Shown here piece after piece: positions 21,357-37,236 of a stretch of DNA of 37,236 nt. The stretch's first letter is position 1; each line of letters begins with the position of its first letter. The notes beneath the pieces are model-generated. The model saw only the letters and a program-made list of their open reading frames with translations, searched no databases and had not been told where the DNA came from. Source of the DNA: Metallosphaera yellowstonensis MK1. GTDB lineage: Archaea > Thermoproteota > Thermoprotei_A > Sulfolobales > Sulfolobaceae. Where the stretch lies: the NCBI RefSeq assembly GCF_000243315.1, contig NZ_JH597761.1, positions 110,604 to 147,839 of the forward strand, read 5' to 3'. The position numbers were made by a program, and so were the translations under genes.

Positions 21357-22512
21357 GGGCGATTCAGGGCTCCATTGCGATTTCTATTTGTTTCTATAGA
21401 ATGAAAGTGACTTAATTGATCCTACATCAGTACACGAAAAGGGGACGAGCGCTAGGTCATACCATGAGACACTCATTCAATCACGTGGTGACCTCGCTCG
21501 TCCCCGAGTTACTTGGGAAGGACGCGCTATTAAATGAAATAGCTGAGATCGAGAGGAGGGCCCTGGAGGAGAGGAGGACCTCCCCCAGGTACGCCAGGGG
21601 GAAGGAGGTGAGGAGGAGGGGTTACGCCAGGTACAGGTTCTTGAAGGGGTTCAAGGTCTCCCTCTGGGGGTCGTGTACGGGCTGGAGTGGGTCACGGTGA
21701 GGTTGCCCGTGATGTACAGGGGAAGGGAGAGGGTGAGGACTGGAGTGGAGGAGTTGCTCAGGGAGGAGAGGCCGGTGCTCAGGTCCCTCCTCCTGCCCGT
21801 GTTGGGAGGGAAGTTGAACGCCGAGCTCTGGACCCAGGAGCTGGAGGTGAGGGGGACTTCAAGTACGTGGTCGTGGACGGGAAGTACGTGAAGTTGAGGG
21901 GAGGGAGGAGGGGGGTCCTCTTAATCGCGTTGGGACTCACTGACCACGGTGTGAGGGCCGTGCTGGACGTGGTCCCGACCGGGGAAGAGGACGTCGTGAG
22001 CTACTGGGACCTCCCGGTGAGGCTGTGGAGGAGGTACAACCTCACCCTGGTCGTAGCCGACGGGGTGAAGGCCCTAGACACGGCAATCTCCCGTTCCGGG
22101 ATCAAGGTCGCGAGGCAGACCTGCCCGGTCTACCTCAAACGGAGGGTGGACAGGAGGGTGAGGGTCTTGCTGGACCTCCTCCTCTCCTTCGCCGAGTCCG
22201 TCCCCATCCGTGGCTCTCCCCTCCTCTCCTACCTCCTCGCCCCCAGGGAGGCCCCTCCTCAGGTCGAACAACCTGGCCGAGTCCTTCAACTCCCTCCTGG
22301 GGAGTTCGGCAAGTGCCACTCCCCCTGGAGGACCGGATCGCCCGGGCCGTAGCAATCAACTACAACCTCTCGACCTGTTATCTCGCTCTTGTAATAATAT
22401 TACAGAGTCCTTATTTCTTCGTGAAACGGTCAAATATATTCAATAATTCCTCCATTGAATAAGTCCAAATCAACAGAGATATTACAATTTGCAAAGGAGC
22501 CCTGAATCGCCC
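21357..22512 (+). mobile_element. IS256-like insertion sequence, 1156 bp
   Basis: Its ends are GGGCGATTCAGGGCTCC (21357) and the inverted GGAGCCCTGAATCGCCC (ending 22512). It encodes a frameshifted transposase. It truncates the DUF499 gene on its right side. The bases flanking the two ends show no matching duplication, so the outer junctions were probably rearranged after insertion. An inverted copy starts at 36593. Confidence 0.82.
21416..22462 (+). pseudogene. IS256/mutator-type transposase, frameshifted
   Basis: Pieces in several frames: an N-terminal part from 21416; a central part reading VVVDGKYVKLRGGRRGVLLIALGL and VLDVVPTGEEDVVSYWDLP; VVADGVKALDTAISRSGIKVARQTC, with the second catalytic Asp; and a C-terminal SNNLAESFNSLL. 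The DG-x-Y/ALGL/SDG-like/QxC order fits IS256-family DDE transposases, though closer archaeal IS groups are possible. At least two frameshifts make it inactive. Confidence 0.75.
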
Positions 22513-23218
22513 TCCTTTACTCTTCTCCTCTATTTTTGCAGGAATTGTAACTAATAATACTACAGGCAAGTTAGATCCCAAAGAGGCTAAATTCTCAAAG
22601 AAGTACAGACATTGATTATAATAATTACCACCACTTAACCCCTTTAATCTTACTAAATAAGCAGCTATCTCATCTACTAAAATTAATACTCTTTCTCCCT
22701 TAAATAATTCCTCTAGTTTATCTTTCGTCGGTGACATGAGATCTTCGTCGTATTTCCTTACGACATCGTATTTCCTAATCTTTTGGCAATGTATCCCCAC
22801 AAAGTTTTTATCTTAATTCCGTCTTCCTCTATTGGATCTTCTGGGGAAGGTGCAGTTCTACTATCCTTACTTCCAATACCTATTACCTTAATATTTTCAG
22901 GGACTTCAAGACCGAATTCCCTTGCTACCGTAGGATTATTAAAAGCATGAAATAGTAAAAGTACAGTATGAGTTTTACCTCCTCCGAATAAAGAATATAA
23001 CGTCATACTTAGGCCTTTACCTTGAGTCAAAGCATTCGTTATTTCCCTAACTAAACTTTTCATAGAATCGGTAATGTACGTCGAAGAGAAGAATTCTCTG
23101 GAATCAAGATAAATTGATGGTGCGTTTTTAACTATTACGTCACTGAGCTCTGGAGCTACTTGATCGTCCAATTAAATACGTCTTCCCTAACCTTATTCTC
23201 GTAAATCAGATTACTCAT
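22513..23218 (-). pseudogene. DUF499 ATPase, frameshifted and cut off by an IS
   Basis: It starts at ATG 23218, overlapping the methylase stop (ATGA), and reads MSNLIYENKVREDVF. A frameshift near 23165 leads into LDDQVAPELSDVIVKNAP. The conserved DUF499 segment EFFSSTYITDSMKSL and Walker A LFGGGKTHTVLLLFH follow. A second shift near 22775 (one base short) leads to KYDVVRKYDEDLMSP and Walker B VLILVDEIAAYLVRLKG. After about 235 residues the gene ends in the IS at 22512; DUF499 proteins are normally around 1000 aa. DUF499 proteins are the usual partner of DUF1156 methylases in antiviral arrays. This copy cannot be functional unless the missing part lies elsewhere. Confidence 0.8.
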
Positions 23219-26010
23219 TGAACCCACTTTTCTATGTTTGTTTTTTCTCCAGATAAACGCTTAGAAGGTTCCTTTTCTACATCAGAATCATCTAATACTT
23301 TTGTCAAGATTCTAGCAATAGCTAAAGCCTCATCTACGAAACGTGTCCTTTCCTTAAGCTTGTTCACCTCTTCCTTTATCTTATCCGGGTTCTTTAATGA
23401 GATGTATTCGAGATAATGAAATGCTTCAACTGGGTTAGAGAAGTTATAGTCGCCTTGAATAGCCTTTCTTACGTCTGGAAGTTGCTCTAATGCCGAAATG
23501 AGACTAAGTTGATCCTTAGCAGCTTGATCTGGCTCAATAAGTGCAATAGAATCTTTATCTAAACTGATAATCCCATTATCTTGTAGACTTTTAACGTCTA
23601 TGTTTCCAGAAATATTCAAGTAAGTTAGAGAATTTCTAACTAATTTTCTCACTCCTCTTTTTGGAGTTGGAATTAAGAGTTTTACTAAAACGTAGTACGT
23701 TGAATTAGGATTAGAAATTGACACACCTGCACCTTTAGATAGTCCTTCAATTATTGACTGCGTAGTAGTAGGAAATATATACTTAGTAATAAGATCACTT
23801 ACAGCATTAACTCCTTCATCTCCCAATCCTACTAATTTCTCGTATTTTGTAAATACACTAATAACTTTTCCTAAAATTTCTATGTAAGTATCTAAGGAAA
23901 GCTTAAGCTTTCCCTTAGTTAACATGGTTGATATCCAATCTGAGACAGTTGAAATTGCCTCTTTCCTGACTTCTTGAACTAGTTTCTGTCCCTCTGCTCT
24001 TTTCCTCCATACTATAGCCATCGACTTATCTAACGAAATTGTAGTATTACGAGCCGTTATTCGCGTTTCGTCTTCCGTAGTTACCGTATATGTAGTGGTT
24101 ATTCTAAACTTTGAAGAATACCAACTAGCGTAAAGTAGAGAAATCCACGCGTCTGGAGAAGTATGATTATAGAATGTTATGAGTAATCCATCATCGTTTA
24201 AAGATTCGCTAAGCTTGTTAAATGCTTTGGCTAGTCTATCTCTAAAATAATCATAAGTACCAACACTATTATCGAACGTCTTAGTTCTCTTTTCGTCAAC
24301 TCCAATATCTTTTGGTACTAGTTCTTCCCATTGTGTATTATAAGAAAATGGAAAAACTCTTTTTAACCATACATAATAGAAATCACTTACTTCAGGGTAA
24401 GGGACATCGTCTGCATAAGGCGGATCTGTAACTATAAGGTCTATTTTATCGCTTAAATTTAATTCATTTACATCAGAATTAAGAATTTCGACTTGTGAAT
24501 TAGAATTAGTTAGTATCAAATATTCTAATCCTTCTTCTACATGTTCCAAACTTCTAGATAAGGAACCTATAATGTTAGCTAAAGGAGATATTTCAACCCA
24601 GTTCCATGTAAACGCAAATCTTCTAAATGACAATGCATGAGCAATAAATTTTCTGCTAGGTTCAACCGATGTTAAGAAGCAATTATGTCTTATATGATTT
24701 AAGAATGCTATAGTTAAATATGTTATTATAGCTTCTTTATATTTCTCATCTCCTCCAATCTTTTCTTTAAATTCGTTTAATTCGTCAATAATTCTACTAA
24801 AAATCACTAGCTGCCTAGCATCGAATAATTTAAAGAATTTATCTATACCCCATGCAGTAAATCTGAGAACACCGTATGAAGCAACATTCTCTGTAGGTAT
24901 TTTGCTTATATCAATTTCCCTTAATCTAGCAAATGATTCCCAGAATTTTTTCTCATCTTCTTCTGTAATCTCTTCAAAAGCTATGTCTTTCGATTCTCCA
25001 TTAAATTTTATGAGAAGTTTAGGTCTAGCTTTAGAATTACGTAAGTCTTCTAGGTTTATTTCTCCATTTAAAAATCTTTCATAATTCTTATTCCACTCTT
25101 TTATTGCTTCTTTTATGTACCATTTATCACCTTTACCGGGGAATACATTATTACAGTACAAACATCTGGCATTACTACTTTTAGCACTAAAGTTTCCCTC
25201 GGGTACGTCATAATCTTTTCCATCTACTATAATTTTATTCTTACTTACCTTAGCTGTTATACTTTGTTTATTAAACTCTTTATTTAGGTCTAAAACCTTT
25301 ATTCTAAGGTTACCTCCATTAATTTCTGGCTTCATAAAAACTATTCTCTTAAACTTTCCAGACTTAACTCCTTCTTCGTTTTCTCCTTCATTACTTTTCA
25401 TAGCCATTAGCCACCACTGCTTAGCCAAAGGAGTGTAATTACCGCAATGGGGGCATTTAACTTCCCATGTCCCCACAAACCCATTGTCTTCATACAATTC
25501 TTTTACATAGTTTTCTAAGCTCTTAAGGAGTTCATCCCCATATTTTTTAACGTCGTCTATAAGTTTCTTTCCATATTTAGGATATTCCAATACTGCCTTT
25601 AGAAATACGTAGGCAGTAGGTAAAAGTTCTGATGCAATAACTTTACCTATTCCTAATCTTTTAGCCTCTAACGGAATTGAACCGAAACCTGCAAAAGGAT
25701 CTAAAAGCGTAAAGCCCTTAAATCTACCGTTAGTTATAGGCTGAAGTTTATGAGGAATTTCAGTCTTTGGACCGTTATTTTGAAGTCTAATCATTCTTTT
25801 AAATTCGTCTAATGGAAAATCTTCAGGTAACAGTGCAGCAGCTGTGAAAGCTCTGGCTGAAATAAGAGGTTTTCTAGTCCACCAAAAAATCATTTCCCAA
25901 TAAGTTGGTCTTCCAGGACCTTTCTCTCTAGCTGCTTGTTTATCTATTTTAGGAATTAAAGTTGCGAAAGAATCACTTTCGATTAACCGTCTCCCATTAT
26001 TTATTGCCAT
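23215..26010 (-). CDS. DUF1156 DNA methyltransferase
   Basis: About 931 aa. MIFWWTRKPLISARAF (about residues 40-56) is the N-terminal DUF1156 signature. The SAM-binding motif LLDPFAGFGSIPLEAKR is at about 102-118 and the catalytic TDPPYADDVPYPEVSDFYYVW at about 528. Two zinc-type pairs, CPHCG (about 187) and CLYC (about 284), lie in a large insert that may recognise the target sequence. The DPPY motif indicates N6-adenine or N4-cytosine methylation. The C-terminal 230 residues are unassigned. I prefer ATG 26010 because a TATA box lies 25 bp upstream; a TTG at 26016 is two codons earlier. It is coupled to the broken DUF499 gene. Its expected role is to mark host DNA for the defence array. Confidence 0.88.
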   Translation of the reverse strand: MAINNGRRLIESDSFATLIPKIDKQAAREKGPGRPTYWEMIFWWTRKPLISARAFTAAALLPEDFPLDEFKRMIRLQNNGPKTEIPHKLQPITNGRFKGFTLLDPFAGFGSIPLEAKRLGIGKVIASELLPTAYVFLKAVLEYPKYGKKLIDDVKKYGDELLKSLENYVKELYEDNGFVGTWEVKCPHCGNYTPLAKQWWLMAMKSNEGENEEGVKSGKFKRIVFMKPEINGGNLRIKVLDLNKEFNKQSITAKVSKNKIIVDGKDYDVPEGNFSAKSSNARCLYCNNVFPGKGDKWYIKEAIKEWNKNYERFLNGEINLEDLRNSKARPKLLIKFNGESKDIAFEEITEEDEKKFWESFARLREIDISKIPTENVASYGVLRFTAWGIDKFFKLFDARQLVIFSRIIDELNEFKEKIGGDEKYKEAIITYLTIAFLNHIRHNCFLTSVEPSRKFIAHALSFRRFAFTWNWVEISPLANIIGSLSRSLEHVEEGLEYLILTNSNSQVEILNSDVNELNLSDKIDLIVTDPPYADDVPYPEVSDFYYVWLKRVFPFSYNTQWEELVPKDIGVDEKRTKTFDNSVGTYDYFRDRLAKAFNKLSESLNDDGLLITFYNHTSPDAWISLLYASWYSSKFRITTTYTVTTEDETRITARNTTISLDKSMAIVWRKRAEGQKLVQEVRKEAISTVSDWISTMLTKGKLKLSLDTYIEILGKVISVFTKYEKLVGLGDEGVNAVSDLITKYIFPTTTQSIIEGLSKGAGVSISNPNSTYYVLVKLLIPTPKRGVRKLVRNSLTYLNISGNIDVKSLQDNGIISLDKDSIALIEPDQAAKDQLSLISALEQLPDVRKAIQGDYNFSNPVEAFHYLEYISLKNPDKIKEEVNKLKERTRFVDEALAIARILTKVLDDSDVEKEPSKRLSGEKTNIEKWVQ

Positions 26011-26027
26011 ACGCAATAAGAAACTTC

Positions 26028-26886: not shown

Positions 26887-28689
26887 TTATTGAACTAAAC
26901 CCTTTACAGCTTTAGCTGTTCCTATATCTTCAAAAAATACATATACCCCTCTTATACCCCTAGTCAGCATAATATAATATCTATTCTTAAGTAGCAATAG
27001 AGCTTTATCTCTTTTCTTAGGATTATTAGCTAACTTCTTTAGTGAAGACGACCCTCCCACGTAATCGGTTATAGGTCCAGGATTAACAATCCACTCTCCA
27101 TTATGCCATATTAAGTCTCTTCCCCATACTACTCCTACATAATCCGCCTCAAAACCTTGTGAACCGTAAACTGAAGAACAATATTTTAGAGAATCTAGTT
27201 CTCCTTTCCAATATCTAGGATATTCGGTTTCCTCATCCATTAACCATTTTACCTTTATTTCATTACCTTCATATTTCATTCCCTTATATAAGTCAAAGCC
27301 CGATTGCAAAGGATAACCTATCCTTATATTCTTTGTACTTTCCCAACTAGTTTTGTTGTTATTATCACCCTCAGATTCTGTGAAGGAACATATAAGAGCA
27401 GTTTTCATTCCATGATTTTTCTCGTTCTTTAACTCATTGAACATATCAGTAATGTTATCAAATATCTTAAAGTCAAAATCACCAGACTTAGCTTTTTCTC
27501 CTTGTAATATCTTTCTTACAAATTCCAAATATTGTTTAGGCTCACGAAATGGTGAAGATAATTTATACTCACTTACGTTTTGCAAATACTTGAGTAAGTT
27601 TTCCCTAGTTCCGGCCTCATTACCTATAAGAACTTGAGAATCATCATAAAAATATACGTTTATCTTTCCTTTAGGAGAATTTCTAATTACATTGTCGGTC
27701 ATTCTTTGAGCTTCGTCAAAGACTATTAAGTCTATATCAGTCTTACTCTCTTTACTCTTAATATGTTTAGAGAACCATTCATCAAACCCTTTTTCTCCTA
27801 TTCCTATATTACGTCCAGTGGAGTAAAACATTACTAATGAGGAAAGTTCCCTACCCAAAGCTTGTCTTACAGCATTTATAAGTCTGTTATTTTTATAGGC
27901 TAAGATTGCGAAATAACCTCGGCTTAAAGCCTCCAAATATAAGGTAATTGCGAGCAAACTTTTCCCAGAACCGCTTTCACCTTGTATGATAAAGTTTTTC
28001 CTTTCGCCCTTAGCCAGAGAGTCTAAAACGTCTTTTAAAACTCGCATTTGTTCTTCCGTTAAGCCGTAGCCAGTAGATAAAAGAACTTTGCTTACGTCTT
28101 TTAATCGTTTTTCTTTTACTTTTTTAACAAGTTCTATGAAAGTGTGTTTAAGCATTAGCTTACTATCTACAATTTTTCTTGCGTCGTTCAGATCGCCAGA
28201 AGGTAAATTTTTGAGCTCATTCCTTAGTTCTTCTATAGTTCTAAGCGTTTTACATTCTTCAGACGAATAATCCCTAGTATTGTAAAGGAAAAGCAGGCCT
28301 TTAAACTTTAGATTAGAAGAATGGAAAAAGTTTAACTTATATACATAATTATTGAGTTGGTAACAAGGATCCAAGTGAAGTTCTCCGTCTGCCTCTACTA
28401 CGTTATCTCCTAATTTCTTTACTGATCTCCAGCCCTTTGCCTCAACTACTACAGCCTTATCTTTATCTGCAAAAATAATGTCTGCTCTTTCTGTGAAAAT
28501 AGGGTATTCTAGGATAATTGGATGAGGAACGTTCAATTCCTGTAAGAGATCCAATAGTTTCTTCCACGCATTTTCTTGCTGAATAGAAGGCTTCTCGTTG
28601 TAAGTTTCAATATACTCATTCACTAAATTATTGTAGGCTTCGTCTGTTGCCGCTTTGAGTATTACTGGGAGCACACTACTAGTCACCAA
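26887..28689 (-). CDS. nuclease-helicase: PD-(D/E)XK-like N-terminus plus DUF2075 helicase
   Basis: A 600-aa protein. Residues 60-90 contain ERADIIFADKDKAVVVEAKG, the D...ExK pattern of a PD-(D/E)XK/NERD-type nuclease. From about 215 it is a DUF2075-type SF1 helicase: GESGSGKSLLAIT (Walker A, about 236-248), LIVFDEAQRM (Walker B, about 319-328), and YYIMLTRGIRGVYVFFED near the C-terminus (motif VI-like, about 570-587). It is likely a DNA- or RNA-degrading effector or processing enzyme. The listed start is TTG 28689. GTG 28674 is better spaced from the TATA box at 28691-28700. The second gene of its operon is the MITE-broken 61-aa ORF. Confidence 0.82.
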   Translation of the reverse strand: MVTSSVLPVILKAATDEAYNNLVNEYIETYNEKPSIQQENAWKKLLDLLQELNVPHPIILEYPIFTERADIIFADKDKAVVVEAKGWRSVKKLGDNVVEADGELHLDPCYQLNNYVYKLNFFHSSNLKFKGLLFLYNTRDYSSEECKTLRTIEELRNELKNLPSGDLNDARKIVDSKLMLKHTFIELVKKVKEKRLKDVSKVLLSTGYGLTEEQMRVLKDVLDSLAKGERKNFIIQGESGSGKSLLAITLYLEALSRGYFAILAYKNNRLINAVRQALGRELSSLVMFYSTGRNIGIGEKGFDEWFSKHIKSKESKTDIDLIVFDEAQRMTDNVIRNSPKGKINVYFYDDSQVLIGNEAGTRENLLKYLQNVSEYKLSSPFREPKQYLEFVRKILQGEKAKSGDFDFKIFDNITDMFNELKNEKNHGMKTALICSFTESEGDNNNKTSWESTKNIRIGYPLQSGFDLYKGMKYEGNEIKVKWLMDEETEYPRYWKGELDSLKYCSSVYGSQGFEADYVGVVWGRDLIWHNGEWIVNPGPITDYVGGSSSLKKLANNPKKRDKALLLLKNRYYIMLTRGIRGVYVFFEDIGTAKAVKGLVQ

Positions 28690-29138: not shown

Positions 29139-30215
29139 ATGTTAATGAGATATTGGGGCAGGAAACCGTTAGAGCTCATTGATAAAATAATGATTGATGT
29201 TCACGGTACCGTTATTGATCCATTTGGGGGTGGTGGTACAATAGTATTTTCAGCCTTAAGACATGATAATAAGGCTATATATTTAGATATTAATCCTTAT
29301 GCATGGTTAGTAACTTTTGTTAACGTAGTAAGTATTGATCCGAAAGAGTTTGAGGAGAAAAGTAAAGAAGTTTTGGAAAACGTTTATTTAGAATCTGTAT
29401 TTTCTCTTCATAATGATTATCTTTATTATCCTAATGGTAAATTTTTTTGGAAAAGAAGAAATGCTGATAGGATTACAGAGTTTTTCTCTAGAGAAAATTT
29501 CATAAAGCTATTTTCTATTTTAAAGAGTATTGACAAAGTTGAGAGTGAAACTGAGGTAAAAATAGCACTTTATGCTACATTTTGTTCTTCTCTTTTCACG
29601 TCTTCAAGAATGAAACGAAGAAACTCTGGTAGCTGGGGAGTACCTTCTTATTGGGTTCCAAAAGAACATGAAGAAGTGAATGCGGAAGAGGCTTTTAAAA
29701 TGTCTGTTAAACGTTTTTCGTCTTATTTTAGGAGAAATAAAGGTTATGAATTAAACGTAGATGTTAAACTTTTAATAGGTAACGCATTAGCTTTTAATTA
29801 CCCTGATCAGTCAATAGTTTTCACTGATCCACCGTATTTTGATGAAATACAATATATGGAATTATCCTTTTTCTATTGGGCCTGGTTAAGGGAAAGTAAT
29901 TTCAAAAAAGTAATTCGAGAAGTTTTAGGCTATGAACCCGAATTTAGAATTAGTGATGAGATAATTGTTAATCCTAATAGAGGAGTTACGTTTGACAAAT
30001 ATATGGAAACGCTAAAGGCGTTCATCACAAAGGTTTCTAAAGTAAACTCTAAGTATCTTCTCTTTCATTATGATAATGACAAGCTAAGAGAAAAGGTTAT
30101 TAAAATAGTCAAGGAAAATTGGACAAGGATAAAGGTTAATGATTTTGAAATAGTAAAACAAAGGAAAATTGGACCTAGAGGAGGTAAAAAATATTTGTTA
30201 GTTTCAAGTCCTTAA
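29139..30215 (+). CDS. DPPY-type DNA methyltransferase (DUF1156-related)
   Basis: A 358-aa protein. It opens with MRYWGRKPLELIDK, a shortened form of the DUF1156 WxRKPL signature. SAM motif VIDPFGGGGTIVFSALRH is at about 26-43, and catalytic motif FTDPPYFDEIQYMELSFFYWAW at about 228-249. It is much smaller than the DUF1156 protein at 23215-26010 and lacks its zinc-finger insert, so it should recognise a different target or form part of a two-subunit methylase. A TATA box (TTTTATATT, about 29110-29118) gives a leaderless start. It converges on the DUF1998-PLD gene with a 4-bp overlap of stop codons. Confidence 0.85.
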   Translation: MLMRYWGRKPLELIDKIMIDVHGTVIDPFGGGGTIVFSALRHDNKAIYLDINPYAWLVTFVNVVSIDPKEFEEKSKEVLENVYLESVFSLHNDYLYYPNGKFFWKRRNADRITEFFSRENFIKLFSILKSIDKVESETEVKIALYATFCSSLFTSSRMKRRNSGSWGVPSYWVPKEHEEVNAEEAFKMSVKRFSSYFRRNKGYELNVDVKLLIGNALAFNYPDQSIVFTDPPYFDEIQYMELSFFYWAWLRESNFKKVIREVLGYEPEFRISDEIIVNPNRGVTFDKYMETLKAFITKVSKVNSKYLLFHYDNDKLREKVIKIVKENWTRIKVNDFEIVKQRKIGPRGGKKYLLVSSP

Positions 30216-32335
30216 GTAGAATTGCTTTTATCTATTATTTCACTGAATTGATCTAAGAATTTTTTGACAGTATTCTCGTCTATACTTACTACTTCAGATT
30301 CTACGTTTTTTTGCAAACCGTTGATAGTAAAGTTTGCCGAACCGTGCATAGTTATAGAGTCATCTATTATCAACATCTTTGTATGCACAATTCCTTGAGA
30401 ATCGGCCTTAAGTTTTATTACCTTAATTTGGTTATTTTCTGCCAATTGTATTGCGTCTTTATTTTTATCGTCGTCTAATGTCACTATCGTAATATCTAGG
30501 TCTCTGTAGGCTTTAATATTAGTGAGATCGTCTATTATATCTTTTCCTATCCAAGGTGAAACAATCTTGATGTTTTTTTGAGCCAGTCTTATTAAATCAA
30601 TAAATATGTTATATAAGCCTTTAGTAATTATGAACTTTGCTTCTCCCATCCAATCCTTATATGTGCTCAAGAATTCACTTACTAACTCTCTACTTACAAG
30701 AAACGGCTGATCGTAAGGACCAAACATACAGCCTTTATCCATACCTACACAAGAATTGCAGCCATCCCAACATAGCGGTAAAGATGATACTACGTCTTTA
30801 AACGTTTGCCTAGTATTGGAATCTTTATTAATTTCCTTTCTTTTAACCTTTCCTACATAATTTCTTACAGCTAAGTGTAAAGGATGAGTGTATTGATATT
30901 GCGAACTCCATTCATTATAGACGTCATAAAGTATATCTAATATACTTTTATCTATTTTACTATTGAAATTATAAATGGTATTCTTCATGTTATTTAAGGA
31001 ACTGTTGAATCTTTTTTCATGATTTGGAAAGTCTAAGGTTAATATGTCAGTTATAAGATTTAGTAAGTTTGTATCTCTCTTTCCTATCATATTAGCTATA
31101 GCCCTAATGTATCCTAGTCCTCCATAAACACTTTCAATAATATATACTGCTGATAAATTTGCGAGCTTATTATTGCCCATTAAGTTACGCAAAATAGGAT
31201 GAGTTATAAAATATGTTATGTCATTAAGTACAGAAGATGATGGGGTAATAGGTATTATTATCTTGCTAATGATCATGTGAGCCAAAGTATGTAATAATAT
31301 AAAGCTGCCAAATTCTGCAAGGTCTTCAATGTCACAATCATTTTTCTGCTGATTTCCTTTACGTAAATCGTCAAATTCTTTTTCAAATCTTTTCATGGCA
31401 TTAAACCCTGCATTACTATTATTTAGATTGACGTAAAGCCTTTTTTTAGAACCGAAGTATATCTTCTTTTTAACGCAAAGCCATGCTCTTAGTTTAGAAT
31501 TATTATCAAGCAAATATTTTATATAATCTCGTAAAGTATATATACTGAATTTAATTATTATTCCATTTAATTTTCTAAGTCTAAAGCCTATTCCTTCTTT
31601 ATAGCTTACCCATAGAAAATCTTTATACATAAGGTCAGCATACTTTGAGTAAAAGATTGAAGCATCGGCAAAAGCATGTAATTTTATCGTATCGCTAAAC
31701 TCTATCTTTCCTATTATTCTCTCAACGTTATTAATTTTAACGGTAATTAAAGAAATTATTTTTCCTTTTTTCCCTATTTCTCCTTCTTCTTCTGCGAATC
31801 TTACGATATGTGGAACAACAGTGTATAATCTCTCGTAAGAAACTGGTCCATAATAATATTTACAAGCATTTTTTCCTTCGAATGCCTCACATTTGTTCAT
31901 TAATGGACATTGTCGTTTATCATTAAGGAGTACGAAGCCATATTTACAATAATATCCATGAATCAGAGAATCATAGTTAAAATTCATTAATTTAGGAAAT
32001 ATTGATATAACATCAGTCTTAGAAATTTTGTTTCTATTTTTCAAATTCATATCCTCGTATTTTATGCTGGTTTTATTGTTCTCGTTGAATAATGTTGCAT
32101 TAATTGTTGAAGGTAATATAACCTTAAAGTTTTCTCTGCTATAGAAAAAGGGCGTGTAACTATCTACTATGCCGTTATTCCAATTTAGATTTCCAGGTGT
32201 TGAATTTAAATATGTTATAGGTACTAAAATTATTGCATATTTTCTCCTACCGAATAATTGTTTAAATGGCGTAAACGTATAAAGTGACTGAATTCCACTT
32301 TTTTGAGTTCCAGAAAATTCACTCATCATTATCAC
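30212..32335 (-). CDS. DUF1998 protein fused to a C-terminal PLD nuclease domain (DrmB-DrmC-like)
   Basis: A 707-aa protein. CPLMNKCEAFEGKNACKYYYG (about 137-157) is a cysteine cluster. LHTLAHMIISK (about 335-345) with YIIESVYGGLGYIRA (about 398-412) is the DUF1998 core, and the cysteine-rich CWDGCNSCVGMDKGC (about 521-535) matches the zinc/iron site of DUF1998 proteins. The C-terminus (about 560-705) is a phospholipase-D-like domain with HTKMLIIDDSITMHGSANFT (about 652-671), an HxKx4Dx6GSxN motif. In DISARM, DrmB (DUF1998) and DrmC (PLD) are separate; here they are one chain. One HKD motif suggests it works as a dimer. Start GTG 32335 or ATG 32329; overlaps the helicase by 17 bp. Confidence 0.85.
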   Translation of the reverse strand: MIMMSEFSGTQKSGIQSLYTFTPFKQLFGRRKYAIILVPITYLNSTPGNLNWNNGIVDSYTPFFYSRENFKVILPSTINATLFNENNKTSIKYEDMNLKNRNKISKTDVISIFPKLMNFNYDSLIHGYYCKYGFVLLNDKRQCPLMNKCEAFEGKNACKYYYGPVSYERLYTVVPHIVRFAEEEGEIGKKGKIISLITVKINNVERIIGKIEFSDTIKLHAFADASIFYSKYADLMYKDFLWVSYKEGIGFRLRKLNGIIIKFSIYTLRDYIKYLLDNNSKLRAWLCVKKKIYFGSKKRLYVNLNNSNAGFNAMKRFEKEFDDLRKGNQQKNDCDIEDLAEFGSFILLHTLAHMIISKIIIPITPSSSVLNDITYFITHPILRNLMGNNKLANLSAVYIIESVYGGLGYIRAIANMIGKRDTNLLNLITDILTLDFPNHEKRFNSSLNNMKNTIYNFNSKIDKSILDILYDVYNEWSSQYQYTHPLHLAVRNYVGKVKRKEINKDSNTRQTFKDVVSSLPLCWDGCNSCVGMDKGCMFGPYDQPFLVSRELVSEFLSTYKDWMGEAKFIITKGLYNIFIDLIRLAQKNIKIVSPWIGKDIIDDLTNIKAYRDLDITIVTLDDDKNKDAIQLAENNQIKVIKLKADSQGIVHTKMLIIDDSITMHGSANFTINGLQKNVESEVVSIDENTVKKFLDQFSEIIDKSNST

Positions 32336-35201
32336 TCTCGTCTACGTCTACAAGTAGGTTAATATTTGGCGAAGGTGGGAGCATTAATAAACTAAAGAAA
32401 ACATAATTTGCAAATATCTTATCTAAAAGTGTAAACACATCTACATGGTTTGATTGCGTAATTAATGTTTTATTAAAACTAGAGATAAATCCTATAAATC
32501 TTAAATACTTCTCATAACCTTGATCTAATGCAGCATTAATTATTTCAACTAAATCACTAGTTTTCTCAAGGGCTTTTTTAACGCTATCTTTTATATCCGA
32601 TAGAAGATCACTTTTTTCTTTTTCATTGATAATATCTAGCAGATTATTTGAGGAATTGGATATTTTTATGTTATCTAATTTTTTATTAAAATTCTCAAGA
32701 TTTTTCAATTTTATGTTTAAGTTTTGTATAAGAGATTTAAGGCTATTATTACTAGCTGTACCAGAATATAAGCTATCTTGAATTTCTTTTACTATTTCAA
32801 AGCTTTTATTTAATATATAAATAATTTCTTTCTTATCAAATATCTTGAGTTCATCAGTATTTTGTTCTTCTATAAAATTTGCCGCCTCTGATATAGAATT
32901 GAGAGTATTATTTATGTATTCGTCTATTTTCTGACTAATTTCCATATTATTATTTTTATTGTCAATAATAATTTCCATATCATTATTAAGCTGCATTAAA
33001 GTATCTTTTAAGGTCTGTTTTAGTTCTTCGTCTGAAAGGTCTAGGCATAGTTGCTTCTTCAATTCTTTCGTAGTATCTTCTGAAGCCAAGGCATTAATAG
33101 ATTGAGAGATTAATTGCCTAGCTATATCTTTGCACTCATCATATTTATTTCCATCATCTACACAAGTACTAATACCTTTAACTGCCCATTTTAAAAGAAT
33201 GTATGAAAAGATATGCTGTAGTGTAATTTCAATATTCATAGAATTAGTTGTAATGAAACGTAATTTTGAATTTAGGTTAGTTAATGTATTTCTGAGATCA
33301 TCGTTATAGATATATAGTGACGCATAGGGTGTAGATTGTAATGTTAATATACCAGTAGCTATTCTGTAATTATTTTCGTTCCTTCCCGCTCTTCCTATTC
33401 TTTGAATAAAACTCTCTTTTGACAATGGCAATTTATGTTGAATTACTAATGCTACATCTCCTATATCGATACCTAACTCCAATGTAGATGTAGAAAATAG
33501 AAGTAATTTTGTTTTATCTTTCTTGAAGCTTTCTTCTATTTCTGATCTTTTTTCAGGAGACAAGAGAGAATAATGTTCATCTATTCCATTTTTTATATTC
33601 TCGGCGAAATTTCTCAGTTCGTCGTCGTCTCCACATATCTTGCTATAGGCTGCTAGGAAAGGCCAATAGTACTCGTCTTTACAACATAAATTTTTAGGAT
33701 CTTTGTAACAAAGATGATCCCTTATTTCTCTACCTTGTCTTCCTCCTAGAATCGTATTCCAAAAATATTTGTAGAAAGTATCTACTCCCGACACGCTATC
33801 AGCAAAAAGTATACCTTTGCGATTGTACTCCTTAAGCCAAGTTAATGCCAACTGAGTTACCTCCTCAGTTAGTGTTTCAACTCCTCTTTCTATGTTAGGA
33901 AAAAGAAATTCGTATAATATTATTCTCTCCTTTTTATTTTCTAAATGCTGATTTTTATAATAATCTTCTAATGATAAAATTTCTGGTATGCAATTTTCAT
34001 TCTCGCAGCAAGCTATTTTAGTTAGAAAATTTTTATAATCTGGAATAGTTGCAGATGAAAATATTATTTTATCAATATAATCTTTTTCTGTAAGATTCTT
34101 CAATGACTCAAGTAATCTTAAGATAAATTTCAAGTGTTGAGTATATATACCGTCGTAGGCATGAATTTCATCAAGCACGATATACCTAATGTTTTTAAAA
34201 CTCTGTACTGTTTCTCTATTGAGAAGTCTCCTATAGAGTATCCATAAATTAGTAACTAAAATATTTGAGTACTCTTTATGGATATCTTCTCTAGTTGCAA
34301 TAAGGTAATCGTATTTATGCCCACACTTTTTACATTCTATTTTTCTATTATTATATATGAGATCTCCTCCGCATTTTACACATTTTAGTCCTCTATACGC
34401 ATCACCGTTCCTTATTTCATATGCCTTTGGTGTATCTCCATCTTCTAATGCAATTGTAACCATTTTATTATATTTTTTCAATTCATCGTTAATTATAGAA
34501 ACATATTTAAGAAGTCTAAAGATTTGATCTTTTGCCAAAGCCTTTCTTGGATATATAAATACTACATTGATTGGTTCTTCTCCTCTAATTACGCTTTCTA
34601 ACAAATATACAAGCCCAGGTAAAGTAAATGCTAATGTCTTTCCACTAGCAGTAGGAGCTACTAATGGTATATACTTATAATCAGTAGAGAGAATTTGCTC
34701 AATTATATACAATTGATAACTCGATATACTTTTTATTTTGGGATCATATTCGTTTAATATTCTCTTAATAATTTTCATTATAAGGATAACATCATCTTTG
34801 GATACTCGATCTCTGACTAATTTATCTTGAATAATTTTAAGTATTTCATTAAAACTATGCGCTTCAAAATCTGGAAATGGTTCTTCTTTTAACTCAATAT
34901 CATATTCTAAAGCGTAAGGCGAATCGTTTTTATAAGCTCTTACATGAGCGGCCTTTGCTAGAAGAGTCATATGGGCTGTCCTATATTTACCACATAAATT
35001 TATAATCATTTTATTATTTATCAATCCTGTAAGTAATTGATTTCCATTATTTAAATTTAAATTTGATATAATATTATTTAACTCGTTGGCATCAAGAAAA
35101 GTTGTAGCAAAGTCTTTATTTTTCTTAAATTTATCAACCTCATACTTTAAAATCGCTTGATATAGTCTAATTTCATCTTCAGTAGGTATTTTGACAGCCA
35201 T
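32319..35201 (-). CDS. SF2 helicase with inserted zinc ribbon (DrmA-like)
   Basis: A 960-aa protein. VAPTASGKTLAFTLPG (motif I, about 181-196), a zinc ribbon CVKCGG...CKKCGH (about 272-293), YIVLDEIHAYDG (motif II, about 339-350), FSSATIP (motif III, about 380), LGIDIGDVALVIQ (about 570-582) and FIQRIGRAGR (motif VI, about 597-606). The C-terminal ~320 residues are coiled-coil-rich and lysine/asparagine-rich. Helicases of this kind pair with DUF1998 proteins (MrfA-type fusions, or DrmA-DrmB in DISARM). It is the middle gene of a three-gene operon, 5 bp after the 418-aa gene. It probably translocates on invading DNA and feeds the PLD domain. Confidence 0.87.
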   Translation of the reverse strand: MAVKIPTEDEIRLYQAILKYEVDKFKKNKDFATTFLDANELNNIISNLNLNNGNQLLTGLINNKMIINLCGKYRTAHMTLLAKAAHVRAYKNDSPYALEYDIELKEEPFPDFEAHSFNEILKIIQDKLVRDRVSKDDVILIMKIIKRILNEYDPKIKSISSYQLYIIEQILSTDYKYIPLVAPTASGKTLAFTLPGLVYLLESVIRGEEPINVVFIYPRKALAKDQIFRLLKYVSIINDELKKYNKMVTIALEDGDTPKAYEIRNGDAYRGLKCVKCGGDLIYNNRKIECKKCGHKYDYLIATREDIHKEYSNILVTNLWILYRRLLNRETVQSFKNIRYIVLDEIHAYDGIYTQHLKFILRLLESLKNLTEKDYIDKIIFSSATIPDYKNFLTKIACCENENCIPEILSLEDYYKNQHLENKKERIILYEFLFPNIERGVETLTEEVTQLALTWLKEYNRKGILFADSVSGVDTFYKYFWNTILGGRQGREIRDHLCYKDPKNLCCKDEYYWPFLAAYSKICGDDDELRNFAENIKNGIDEHYSLLSPEKRSEIEESFKKDKTKLLLFSTSTLELGIDIGDVALVIQHKLPLSKESFIQRIGRAGRNENNYRIATGILTLQSTPYASLYIYNDDLRNTLTNLNSKLRFITTNSMNIEITLQHIFSYILLKWAVKGISTCVDDGNKYDECKDIARQLISQSINALASEDTTKELKKQLCLDLSDEELKQTLKDTLMQLNNDMEIIIDNKNNNMEISQKIDEYINNTLNSISEAANFIEEQNTDELKIFDKKEIIYILNKSFEIVKEIQDSLYSGTASNNSLKSLIQNLNIKLKNLENFNKKLDNIKISNSSNNLLDIINEKEKSDLLSDIKDSVKKALEKTSDLVEIINAALDQGYEKYLRFIGFISSFNKTLITQSNHVDVFTLLDKIFANYVFFSLLMLPPSPNINLLVDVDESDNDE

Positions 35202-35206
35202 AATAT

Positions 35207-36463
35207 CTACACCTTATTTAATAATCTTGAAGTATAAATTCTTTTTAGCTTTTGAATTATCTCTGTTATAGTTTTATATTCAATATTATAATCATTAATT
35301 ATTTTAATTAATTCTTCTTTTTTATTAACTATATTTTTAGTATTATCTCTAAATAGATTCAAAAGTTTCTTTCTTTTAATCTCATCTTTTAAAATATTAT
35401 TGACTAACAAAGTATATAATTGTTCATTCTCAAAAGCAATGGAAGTTAGTTCCGGATGCACAAATATTATATTATTTCTATTATCAACAACAAAAATCCT
35501 TATTTTAAAGTCGTTATAATTAAAAGAAAACATCTCTTCTATATCATTTCCAGATTGTATGTAAATATTCATTTTTATTGGCGAACTATTTACCTTTTGT
35601 ATAAATTTAGAGAATTTTTCAATTATATTTTTGAATTCCTGAAAACTACATATTTTAAGAAAATCATCATTATCTAACTTAGTTACATATATACTTCTAA
35701 GTATCATTAGGATAATCCTTGATTTTATATCTAATTTATTATAATATCCTCCTTTTTCGTTATTATACTCTATAAGGAAGTTATTATTGCTTATTTTACA
35801 TTTATCCTCTCCTGTTCTCTCTATAATAATCCTCTTAACTAATAGATACGTCAATAAATTTTTCTCTATGTTATTATCTAAATTAATATTTCTAAAATTT
35901 AAATTTATATCCAAGTATTTACCATTAGTATCTATACTAGCATAAGTATGATAAATTTTGAATATAGTTAGGTGTCTTTGTCTAACATATATGTAAATGT
36001 TTCCACGAAATATGTTATTCTCGTTAAATGGTAGACTCAAAGAAAATAGCCAATATGTACCATAAGTATCCAATAACTTATCATTAGATAAAACATTTCC
36101 GTTATGACTTTTATTGTAATCGCAAATACCACAAGAATGACATATTAAACTCTTGTCATATTTAACTATCTTATTAGAAAATTCTCTGAAAAAATCTTTG
36201 TGCTGTCCCCAATATTTATAAGTCATTATCCTATCCTGAGTTAAAACATATATTGGCAGAAACATACCCGTATTGAATACGTTCCCTTTCCAAAGAAAAA
36301 TTCGTTTGACAGTGATTGGACCTACTAGATTACCTAAATTAAAAAAGTATACATGGGTACCACCGTAAGCATAGTCCCGAATGCTATTATATTGTTGCTC
36401 GTATTTATTGCAACCACGAAGAAGGAATTTTACGTGTTCCTCATGATCGGACTTATCCGCCAT
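35207..36463 (-). CDS. unrecognised 418-aa protein heading the helicase operon
   Basis: A 418-aa protein without a motif I know. A cysteine triplet, CHSCGIC (about residues 108-114), could hold zinc. It is rich in Asn, Ile, Tyr and Lys, as AT-rich genes are, with many beta-strand-like stretches in the first 200 residues and a helical C-terminal 80 residues. It is the first gene of the operon with the helicase and DUF1998-PLD protein, so it is likely a core or recognition subunit of the same complex, in the position where DISARM variants carry drmD, drmE or other variable genes. Start ATG 36463 fits a TATA box about 30 bp upstream. Confidence 0.75.
   Translation of the reverse strand: MADKSDHEEHVKFLLRGCNKYEQQYNSIRDYAYGGTHVYFFNLGNLVGPITVKRIFLWKGNVFNTGMFLPIYVLTQDRIMTYKYWGQHKDFFREFSNKIVKYDKSLICHSCGICDYNKSHNGNVLSNDKLLDTYGTYWLFSLSLPFNENNIFRGNIYIYVRQRHLTIFKIYHTYASIDTNGKYLDINLNFRNINLDNNIEKNLLTYLLVKRIIIERTGEDKCKISNNNFLIEYNNEKGGYYNKLDIKSRIILMILRSIYVTKLDNDDFLKICSFQEFKNIIEKFSKFIQKVNSSPIKMNIYIQSGNDIEEMFSFNYNDFKIRIFVVDNRNNIIFVHPELTSIAFENEQLYTLLVNNILKDEIKRKKLLNLFRDNTKNIVNKKEELIKIINDYNIEYKTITEIIQKLKRIYTSRLLNKV
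36234..36320. repeat. 87-bp direct repeat, copy 1 (inside the 418-aa gene)
   Basis: Identical base for base to 36506-36592. It covers codons about 48-76 of the 418-aa gene. Confidence 0.9.
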
Positions 36464-36505: not shown

Positions 36506-36592
36506 TCCTGAGTTAAAACATATATTGGCAGAAACATACCCGTATTGAATACGTTCCCTTTCCAAAGAAAAATTCGTTTGACAGTGATTGGA
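36506..36592. repeat. 87-bp direct repeat, copy 2 (between promoter and IS)
   Basis: A perfect copy of 36234-36320, lying upstream of the gene it came from and touching the IS end at 36593. It contains no start and is a displaced gene fragment. Confidence 0.9.
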
Positions 36593-37236
36593 GGGCGATT
36601 CAGGGCTCCTTTGCGAATTGTAATATCTCTGTTGATTTGGACTTATTCAATGGAGGAATTATTGGATATATTTGACCATTTCACGAAGAAATAAGGAACC
36701 TTGTAATATTATTACAAGAGCGAGATAACAGGTCGAGAGGTTGTAGTTGAGGGCTATGGCCTGGGCGATCTGGAGTATCCTCCAGGGAGAGTGGCACTTC
36801 CCGAACCTCCTCCTCTCCAGGAGGGAGTTGAAGGACTCGGCCAGGTTGTTCGACCTGAGGAGGGGCCAGAGCTCCCTGGGGGCGAGGAGGTAGGAGGGGA
36901 GAGCCACGGGTGGGGACGGACTCGGCGAGGGAGAGGAGGAGGTCCAGCAAGACCCTCACCCTCCTGTCCACCCTCCGTTTGAGGTGGACCAGGCAGGTCT
37001 GCCTCGCGACCTTGATCCCGGAGCGGGAGATTGCCGTGTCTAGGGCCTTCACCCCGTCGGCTACGACCAGGGTGAGGTTGTACCTCCTCCACAGCCTCAC
37101 CGGGAGGTCCCAGTAGCTCACGACGTCCTCCTCCCTGGTCGGGACCACGTCAAGCACGGCCCTCACACCGTGGTCAGTGAGTCCCAACGCGATTAAGAGG
37201 ACCCCCCTCCTCCCTCCCCTCAACTTCACGTACTTC
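36593..37236 (-). mobile_element. IS256-like element, inverted copy at window edge
   Basis: It begins with GGGCGATTCAGGGCTCC and matches, in reverse, the right half of the element at 21357-22512 with scattered differences. On the minus strand it encodes LRGGRRGVLLIALGL, VVADGVKALDTAISRSG and a C-terminal LLRSNNLAESFNSLLERRRFG in a shifted frame. The rest lies beyond the window. With the left copy it brackets the whole defence island. Confidence 0.82.
36659..37236 (-). pseudogene. IS256-like transposase, C-terminal part, frameshifted
   Basis: The central catalytic region runs in one frame until about 36900. It then continues only in a second frame (from about 36907) that reads ALPSYLLAPRELWPLLRSNN and FGKCHSPWRILQIAQAIALN. 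The frame change shows this copy is also defective, though its C-terminal end is better preserved than in the copy at 21416-22462. Confidence 0.7.

What the first reader, a model, noticed from the sequence alone, without database searches (positions are those of the whole stretch)
35207..36463. Unknown 418-aa protein is the first gene of the defence operon
It precedes the helicase by 5 bp and has a CHSCGIC cluster but no familiar domain. Operon position suggests an essential subunit such as an invader-recognition factor.
Basis: partly seen in the sequence, partly recalled or inferred. Interest (0 to 1): 0.6.

Follow-up and report, generated by a model that had tools for sequence, protein, structure and literature searches.

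The report
Unknown partner of archaeal defence helicase
This gene belongs to a small, so far unmodelled archaeal protein family found beside a DNA-helicase, nuclease and methylase defence cluster, where it is most likely an exchangeable partner that helps decide when or where the machinery acts.

Summary
The 418-aa ORF (here X) is real, on the minus strand, at the stated coordinates, 5 bp before the helicase. X matches no Pfam, NCBIfam or PADLOC family at a curated level and no PDB sequence. Genome searches with X alone found three full-length homologues (56, 38 and 18% identity). All four loci, window included, carry the helicase and a DUF1998 gene; three of four have the PLD fusion. Three of its claims are weakened: the CHSCGIC cluster is not conserved; first-gene position is not general; and X was found in only 4 of 11 helicase/DUF1998 loci examined (a fifth doubtful), so it is a subtype-specific subunit, not a universal one. 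New here: X groups window with G030, whereas helicase, DUF1998-PLD and methylase group G030 with G024 (5000/5000 against 0/5000 bootstraps), so X was exchanged or accelerated separately from its operon. That fits an activating or recognition partner, like DruH for DruE, but no structure could be predicted (pLDDT 41 and 33), so the biochemical role stays inferred.

The parts
35207..36463 (-). X: 418-aa protein of an unmodelled family, first gene of the cluster here
32319..35201 (-). SF2 helicase without its own DUF1998 domain, 960 aa; Walker A GKT, DE.H, SAT and QR.GRAGR kept in 4 of 4 aligned homologues; Cys pairs inside RecA1
30212..32335 (-). DUF1998-like (Cys-rich) protein fused to a C-terminal PLD nuclease domain, 707 aa; overlaps the helicase gene by 17 bp; HxK...D and GSxN kept in 4 of 4
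   Evidence: the DUF1998 name rests on Cys spacing and context, no Pfam DUF1998 hit
29139..30215 (+). convergent D12/N6-N4-type DNA methyltransferase, 358 aa (DPFGGGG and DPPY)
36506..36592 (-). exact 87-bp copy of X codons about 48-76, remnant upstream of the intact gene
36593..37236 (-). insertion sequence with 39 further matches of its end in this genome; its terminal repeat abuts the 87-bp remnant; runs off the window

Best explanation
X is a subtype-specific, non-catalytic partner of an archaeal YprA/DISARM-like restriction machine. Proposed working: the convergent methyltransferase marks host DNA; the SF2 helicase and the separate DUF1998 subunit form the translocating core (as DrmA and DrmB do); the PLD domain fused to DUF1998 cuts DNA. 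X binds that core and senses an invader (a viral protein or DNA structure) or brings the core to its target, so that the nuclease acts only then. Shown here: gene, family, co-localisation, conserved catalytic motifs in the neighbours, separate history of X. Inferred: complex formation, sensing, cutting and protection.
For: All 4 full-length X genes lie in a helicase/DUF1998 cluster; in the 60 nearest relatives X, helicase and DUF1998-PLD coincide in G024 and G030, while G052 has the latter two without X. Tight packing: 5-bp gap in the window, 11-bp overlap with the helicase in G024, 4-bp overlap with the methylase in G084. Neighbours keep helicase, PLD and methylase motifs in 4 of 4 rows. X shows no enzyme motif that I recognise among its invariant columns. 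X history differs from partners: G000-G030 closest in X (57 against 40% for G030-G024), G030-G024 closest in helicase (62), DUF1998-PLD (66) and methylase (73); 5000/5000 bootstraps for X against 0/5000 for each partner; AU test rejects the partner topology for X, p 0.013. Analogue: in Druantia III the partner-specific DruH is the likely sensor for the YprA-family helicase DruE and diverges more than DruE (PMC13192584, passages); DruH-DruE interaction is needed for defence (PMC13316683, abstract).
Against: No fold: AF2 pLDDT 41.1 and 33.3, no PDB fold match at E<=0.001. X was not found in 6 of 11 loci with helicase plus DUF1998, so the core may work without it. In G030 an 885-bp stretch without ORFs of 40 aa separates X from the helicase. 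Only four members: the incongruence could be acceleration in G024 rather than exchange, and the AU rejection rests on a very distant outgroup (G084) with which helicase and DUF1998 trees are themselves undecided.
Confidence: 0.5

Rival explanations
1. X is a scaffold or assembly subunit that holds helicase and DUF1998-PLD together; it does not sense anything.
For: Close packing with the helicase gene in the window and G024; mixed alpha/beta with a helical C terminus in the (low-confidence) model.
Against: 6 of 11 loci carry the split helicase/DUF1998 pair with no X found; X does not track the history of its supposed binding partners.
Confidence: 0.22
2. X is a specificity or accessory subunit of the neighbouring DNA methyltransferase (self-marking side rather than attack side).
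For: In G084 the X stop overlaps the start of a methylase gene; a methylase is near in all four X loci.
Against: In the window, G030 and G024 the methylase is convergent and at the far end, and its similarity pattern follows the helicase and DUF1998-PLD, not X; the methylase also occurs without X (G052, L062).
Confidence: 0.13
3. X is an independent cargo gene of a mobile defence island, associated by shared transfer only.
For: Island is AT-rich (X 25% GC; first 23 kb of window 51%) and bordered by an insertion sequence; a fragment of X lies away from such a cluster in G333.
Against: Association holds at 18% identity in another family with a different gene order; genes abut or overlap.
Confidence: 0.1

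Closest known systems
Druantia III, DruH with DruE (PMC13192584, PMC13316683)
   Same: A subtype-specific partner protein beside a YprA-family helicase; partner diverges differently from the helicase.
   Different: X is 418 aa against more than 1000 residues for DruH (R1064 and K1067 are named in the passages seen); no PADLOC match for any X member; here DUF1998 is a separate PLD-fused gene and a methylase is present.
DISARM DrmA-DrmB-DrmC (PMC9142583)
   Same: Helicase and DUF1998 in separate genes, PLD nuclease and DNA methylase in one locus.
   Different: PLD fused to DUF1998; helicase scores better to DpdJ (130 bits) than to DrmA (90 bits); DrmB_fam only 13.3 bits against a 240 cut-off; no DrmE or DrmD match for X.
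Dpd (DpdJ helicase, DpdK PLD)
   Same: Best helicase match and a PLD match; Cys pairs inside RecA1.
   Different: DpdJ is not split from its C-terminal module (PMC12458937); no 7-deazaguanine genes among the six cluster proteins scanned.
BR (DUF499-centred) / HMA systems (PMC12839542)
   Same: DUF1156 methylase and DUF499 ATPase lie next to the X cluster in the window and G030.
   Different: Separate machinery: in the window DUF499 is broken and in G024 DUF1156 is in pieces while the X genes are intact.

Membership tests
DISARM | helicase and DUF1998 subunit encoded by separate adjacent genes | tested here: met
DISARM | DrmB-family DUF1998 protein | tested here: not met
   NCBIfam DrmB_fam 13.3 bits, cut-off 240; no PADLOC DrmB among hits
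DISARM | separate PLD nuclease gene DrmC | tested here: not met
   PLD is the C terminus of the DUF1998 protein; similarity to DrmC only over that domain
DISARM | class genes DrmD or DrmE, here X as DrmE | tested here: not met
   0 of 6 members of A6 match any PADLOC model at E<=10
Dpd | DpdA and 7-deazaguanine genes | not tested
   only six cluster proteins were scanned
ARMADA | YprA helicase with fused DUF1998 and Vsr nuclease, with BrxHII helicase and PglX methylase | tested here: not met
   helicase ends without DUF1998 or nuclease domain; definition from PMC12458937
DruH (YjiT family) | sequence match to a DruH model | tested here: inconclusive
   no PADLOC match and no significant Pfam match for any X member; that PADLOC holds a DruH model is recalled
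Zinc-finger protein | conserved Cys/His ligand set | tested here: not met
   only 2 Cys of the cluster kept in 3 of 4 members, none in the fourth

The most novel reading that the evidence does not exclude
X is a swappable invader-recognition subunit of an undescribed archaeal restriction class in which a common helicase, DUF1998-nuclease and methylase core accepts different lineage-specific sensors, as type I restriction enzymes accept different specificity subunits.
Probability: 0.25. Interest if true: 0.75.

Novelty: new variant of a known kind. Interest (0 to 1): 0.48.

Why it matters
How YprA-family defence helicases are told that a virus is present is open; in Druantia III the answer appears to be a partner protein. 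If X is the partner in an archaeal relative, that idea would extend across domains of life and give a small (418 aa) sensor to study. The separate history of X suggests that sensing and cutting evolve as modules.

Tried and rejected
Zinc-finger reading of CHSCGIC: rejected by the alignment. ERp29_N (Pfam E 0.05, 14.2 bits, cut-off 20.7) and phrog hits (best 0.0043 for one of 6 members) taken as chance.

Weak X hits dropped from the count: G006 (E 0.004, frame of 150 aa in a region of metabolic genes), G160 (E 0.006), G396 and G406 (E 5.7e-4 and 0.002, SMC-like coiled coils by eye), L016 6445-6894 (RidA-like by eye, E 0.001). G333 carries only an N-terminal fragment of X (E 1.1e-6; 4.8e-35 once it is part of the profile) with no such cluster on the 12 kb read: one homologous remnant away from helicase/DUF1998 genes.

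G327 ORF L053:3982-5403, 473 aa, divergent beside the helicase: not found by HMM profiles (1.7 bits, shuffles reach 9.2); hhalign 25.68 with 0 of 150 column shuffles as high (best 25.2), top of the 74 non-X ORFs among 77 tested. One search read the wrong column for its shuffles and its null is void; one search repeats it. Left as doubtful.

No X in viral contigs, plasmids or genome contigs (140 pattern matches, none confirmed). Papers: six searches listed none whose title or abstract start describes an X-like protein; PMC12458937 was read in parts 1-3 of 8 and by term search, PMC12839542, PMC13192584 and PMC9142583 by passages, PMC13316683 abstract and outline.

Full report
What is there. The ORF at 35207-36463 is read on the minus strand, starts with ATG and encodes 418 aa; the helicase starts 5 bp later and the helicase and DUF1998-PLD genes overlap by 17 bp. 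The methyltransferase at 29139-30215 runs convergently. The cluster is AT-rich (X 25.2, helicase 28.9, DUF1998-PLD 30.1, methylase 31.2% GC) against 51.4% for bases 1-23000.

Family. X has no Pfam or NCBIfam match at a curated cut-off and no PADLOC match at all, and its profile finds nothing convincing in PDB sequences (best E 0.41). Searching 60 relatives with X alone gave G030 (56%) and G024 (38%) at full length. The three-sequence profile searched in all 214 held genomes of the order found 4 genomes (own, G030, G024, G084), and the four-sequence profile in 229 of the class the same 4. In a 398-genome phylum draw it added only a fragment in G333 and chance hits. G084 is 17.5-22.2% identical to the others over the full length; E 1.8e-7 before inclusion, hhalign 5.8e-7.

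Context. Window, G030 and G024 share the order X, helicase, DUF1998-PLD, with the methylase convergent. G030 has an 885-bp stretch without a 40-aa ORF between X and the helicase. G084 has a PD-(D/E)XK Cas4-like nuclease (Pfam PDDEXK_1 E 9e-7), helicase, a DUF1998-type protein without PLD, X, methylase; a Piwi-domain Argonaute lies 4.4 kb beyond the methylase. I examined 11 loci with helicase plus DUF1998: window, G030, G024, G084 with X; G327 with a doubtful X; G052, G160, G329, G539, G369 and a Vulcanisaeta contig (L062) with none by HMM on ORFs or six frames. G159, which also has the fusion, was not examined. Full-length DUF1998-PLD fusions occur in 6 of 214 genomes of the order, X in 3 of those 6.

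Cys cluster. Cys108 and 114 are kept in G030 and G024, Cys111 is not; G084 has no Cys in the region and one in all. It cannot be a family-wide metal site.

History. In helicase, DUF1998-PLD and methylase, G030 and G024 are closest (62.2, 65.4, 73.1% identity) and the window sequence is the outlier (49-61%). In X the window and G030 are closest (55.6%) and G024 is the outlier (38-41%). Resampling gap-free columns, window-G030 was closer than G030-G024 in 5000 of 5000 for X and 0 of 5000 for each partner; the order holds in all 9 windows along X. Four-taxon AU tests: for X with G084, the G030+G024 grouping is rejected (p 0.013) while G000+G024 is not (p 0.061). For DUF1998-PLD with G327, both alternatives to G030+G024 are rejected (p 0.002). 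The other seven tests (helicase with G084, G327, G052; DUF1998-PLD with G084, G052; methylase with G052, L062) do not reject at 0.05, and the two of them with G084 lean to G000+G030. So exchange of X, or acceleration in G024, is supported by similarity; the topology proof is modest.

Mechanism. What follows from known families: in DISARM the helicase DrmA and DUF1998 protein DrmB form an autoinhibited core that opens on DNA with a 5' overhang, and methylation lowers its ATPase activity (PMC9142583, passages). In Druantia III the YprA-family DruE is the helicase-nuclease and DruH the likely sensor; the authors say that subtype-specific partners determine how the DruE core is activated (PMC13192584, passages). 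X fits the same logical place: not universal, subtype-bound, no catalytic motif recognised, with a history of its own. That X senses or recruits is inference; I give about 0.85 to 'subunit or regulator of this machinery' and about 0.5 to the sensing or targeting role.

Classification. The cluster is a YprA/DISARM/Dpd-like system. It keeps the split helicase/DUF1998 layout of DISARM but fails the DrmB and DrmC tests, and its helicase is nearer DpdJ in PADLOC (130 against 90 bits). The authors of the YprA survey say that the split is sporadically seen in other lineages (PMC12458937). I do not file it as DISARM. X itself is a new family as far as the libraries used show.

Upstream scar. An exact 87-bp copy of X codons about 48-76 lies between the X promoter region and the end of an insertion sequence. 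The end of the same element has 39 further matches in this genome (43 matches, less the query itself, the 87-bp copy and two short ones). The element begins exactly where the copy stops, and its other end (L017:8862) abuts other DNA with no matching target duplication; a 100-N gap lies inside it. Likely a second X copy or allele was hit by the element and then mostly deleted; an assembly error cannot be excluded. The intact gene downstream keeps full length.

Noticed in passing
window 36506-36592 and 36234-36320; L017 7197-8862: Exact 87-bp remnant of X abutting an insertion sequence whose end has 39 further matches in the genome; no target duplication at the other end; assembly gap inside the element.
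   Followed up: yes
window 21357-23190 and 23215-26016: DUF1156 methylase intact, but the neighbouring DUF499 ATPase gene is frameshifted and interrupted by the same insertion-sequence family; a decaying BR/HMA system beside an intact X cluster. In G024 the DUF1156 gene is in pieces.
   Followed up: partly
window 26887-28689: 600-aa Schlafen group 3 helicase with a weak N-terminal NERD match between the two systems.
   Followed up: no
L024 3139-3687 and L062 11076-11705: Where DUF1998 lacks the fused PLD, a separate small nuclease-like gene (PD-(D/E)XK/Cas4-like in L024; similar by eye in L062) lies in the locus, as if nucleases were swapped.
   Followed up: partly
L024 16486-18975; L052 1158-3350: Piwi-domain Argonaute beside the G084 X cluster; a 730-aa protein beside the G160 cluster looked Argonaute-like by eye but has no Pfam Piwi hit.
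   Followed up: partly
L018 4010-5583: Unknown 314-aa and 179-aa ORFs stand upstream of the helicase in G052, where X stands in the window; no detectable similarity to X.
   Followed up: partly
L063 886-1275; L090 9907-10452: Remnants: an N-terminal X fragment in G333 and a broken relative of the G327 ORF in G233 next to a helicase fragment (SNF2-like by eye).
   Followed up: partly
L014 7896-8779: 885-bp AT-rich stretch without ORFs of 40 aa between X and the helicase in G030.
   Followed up: no
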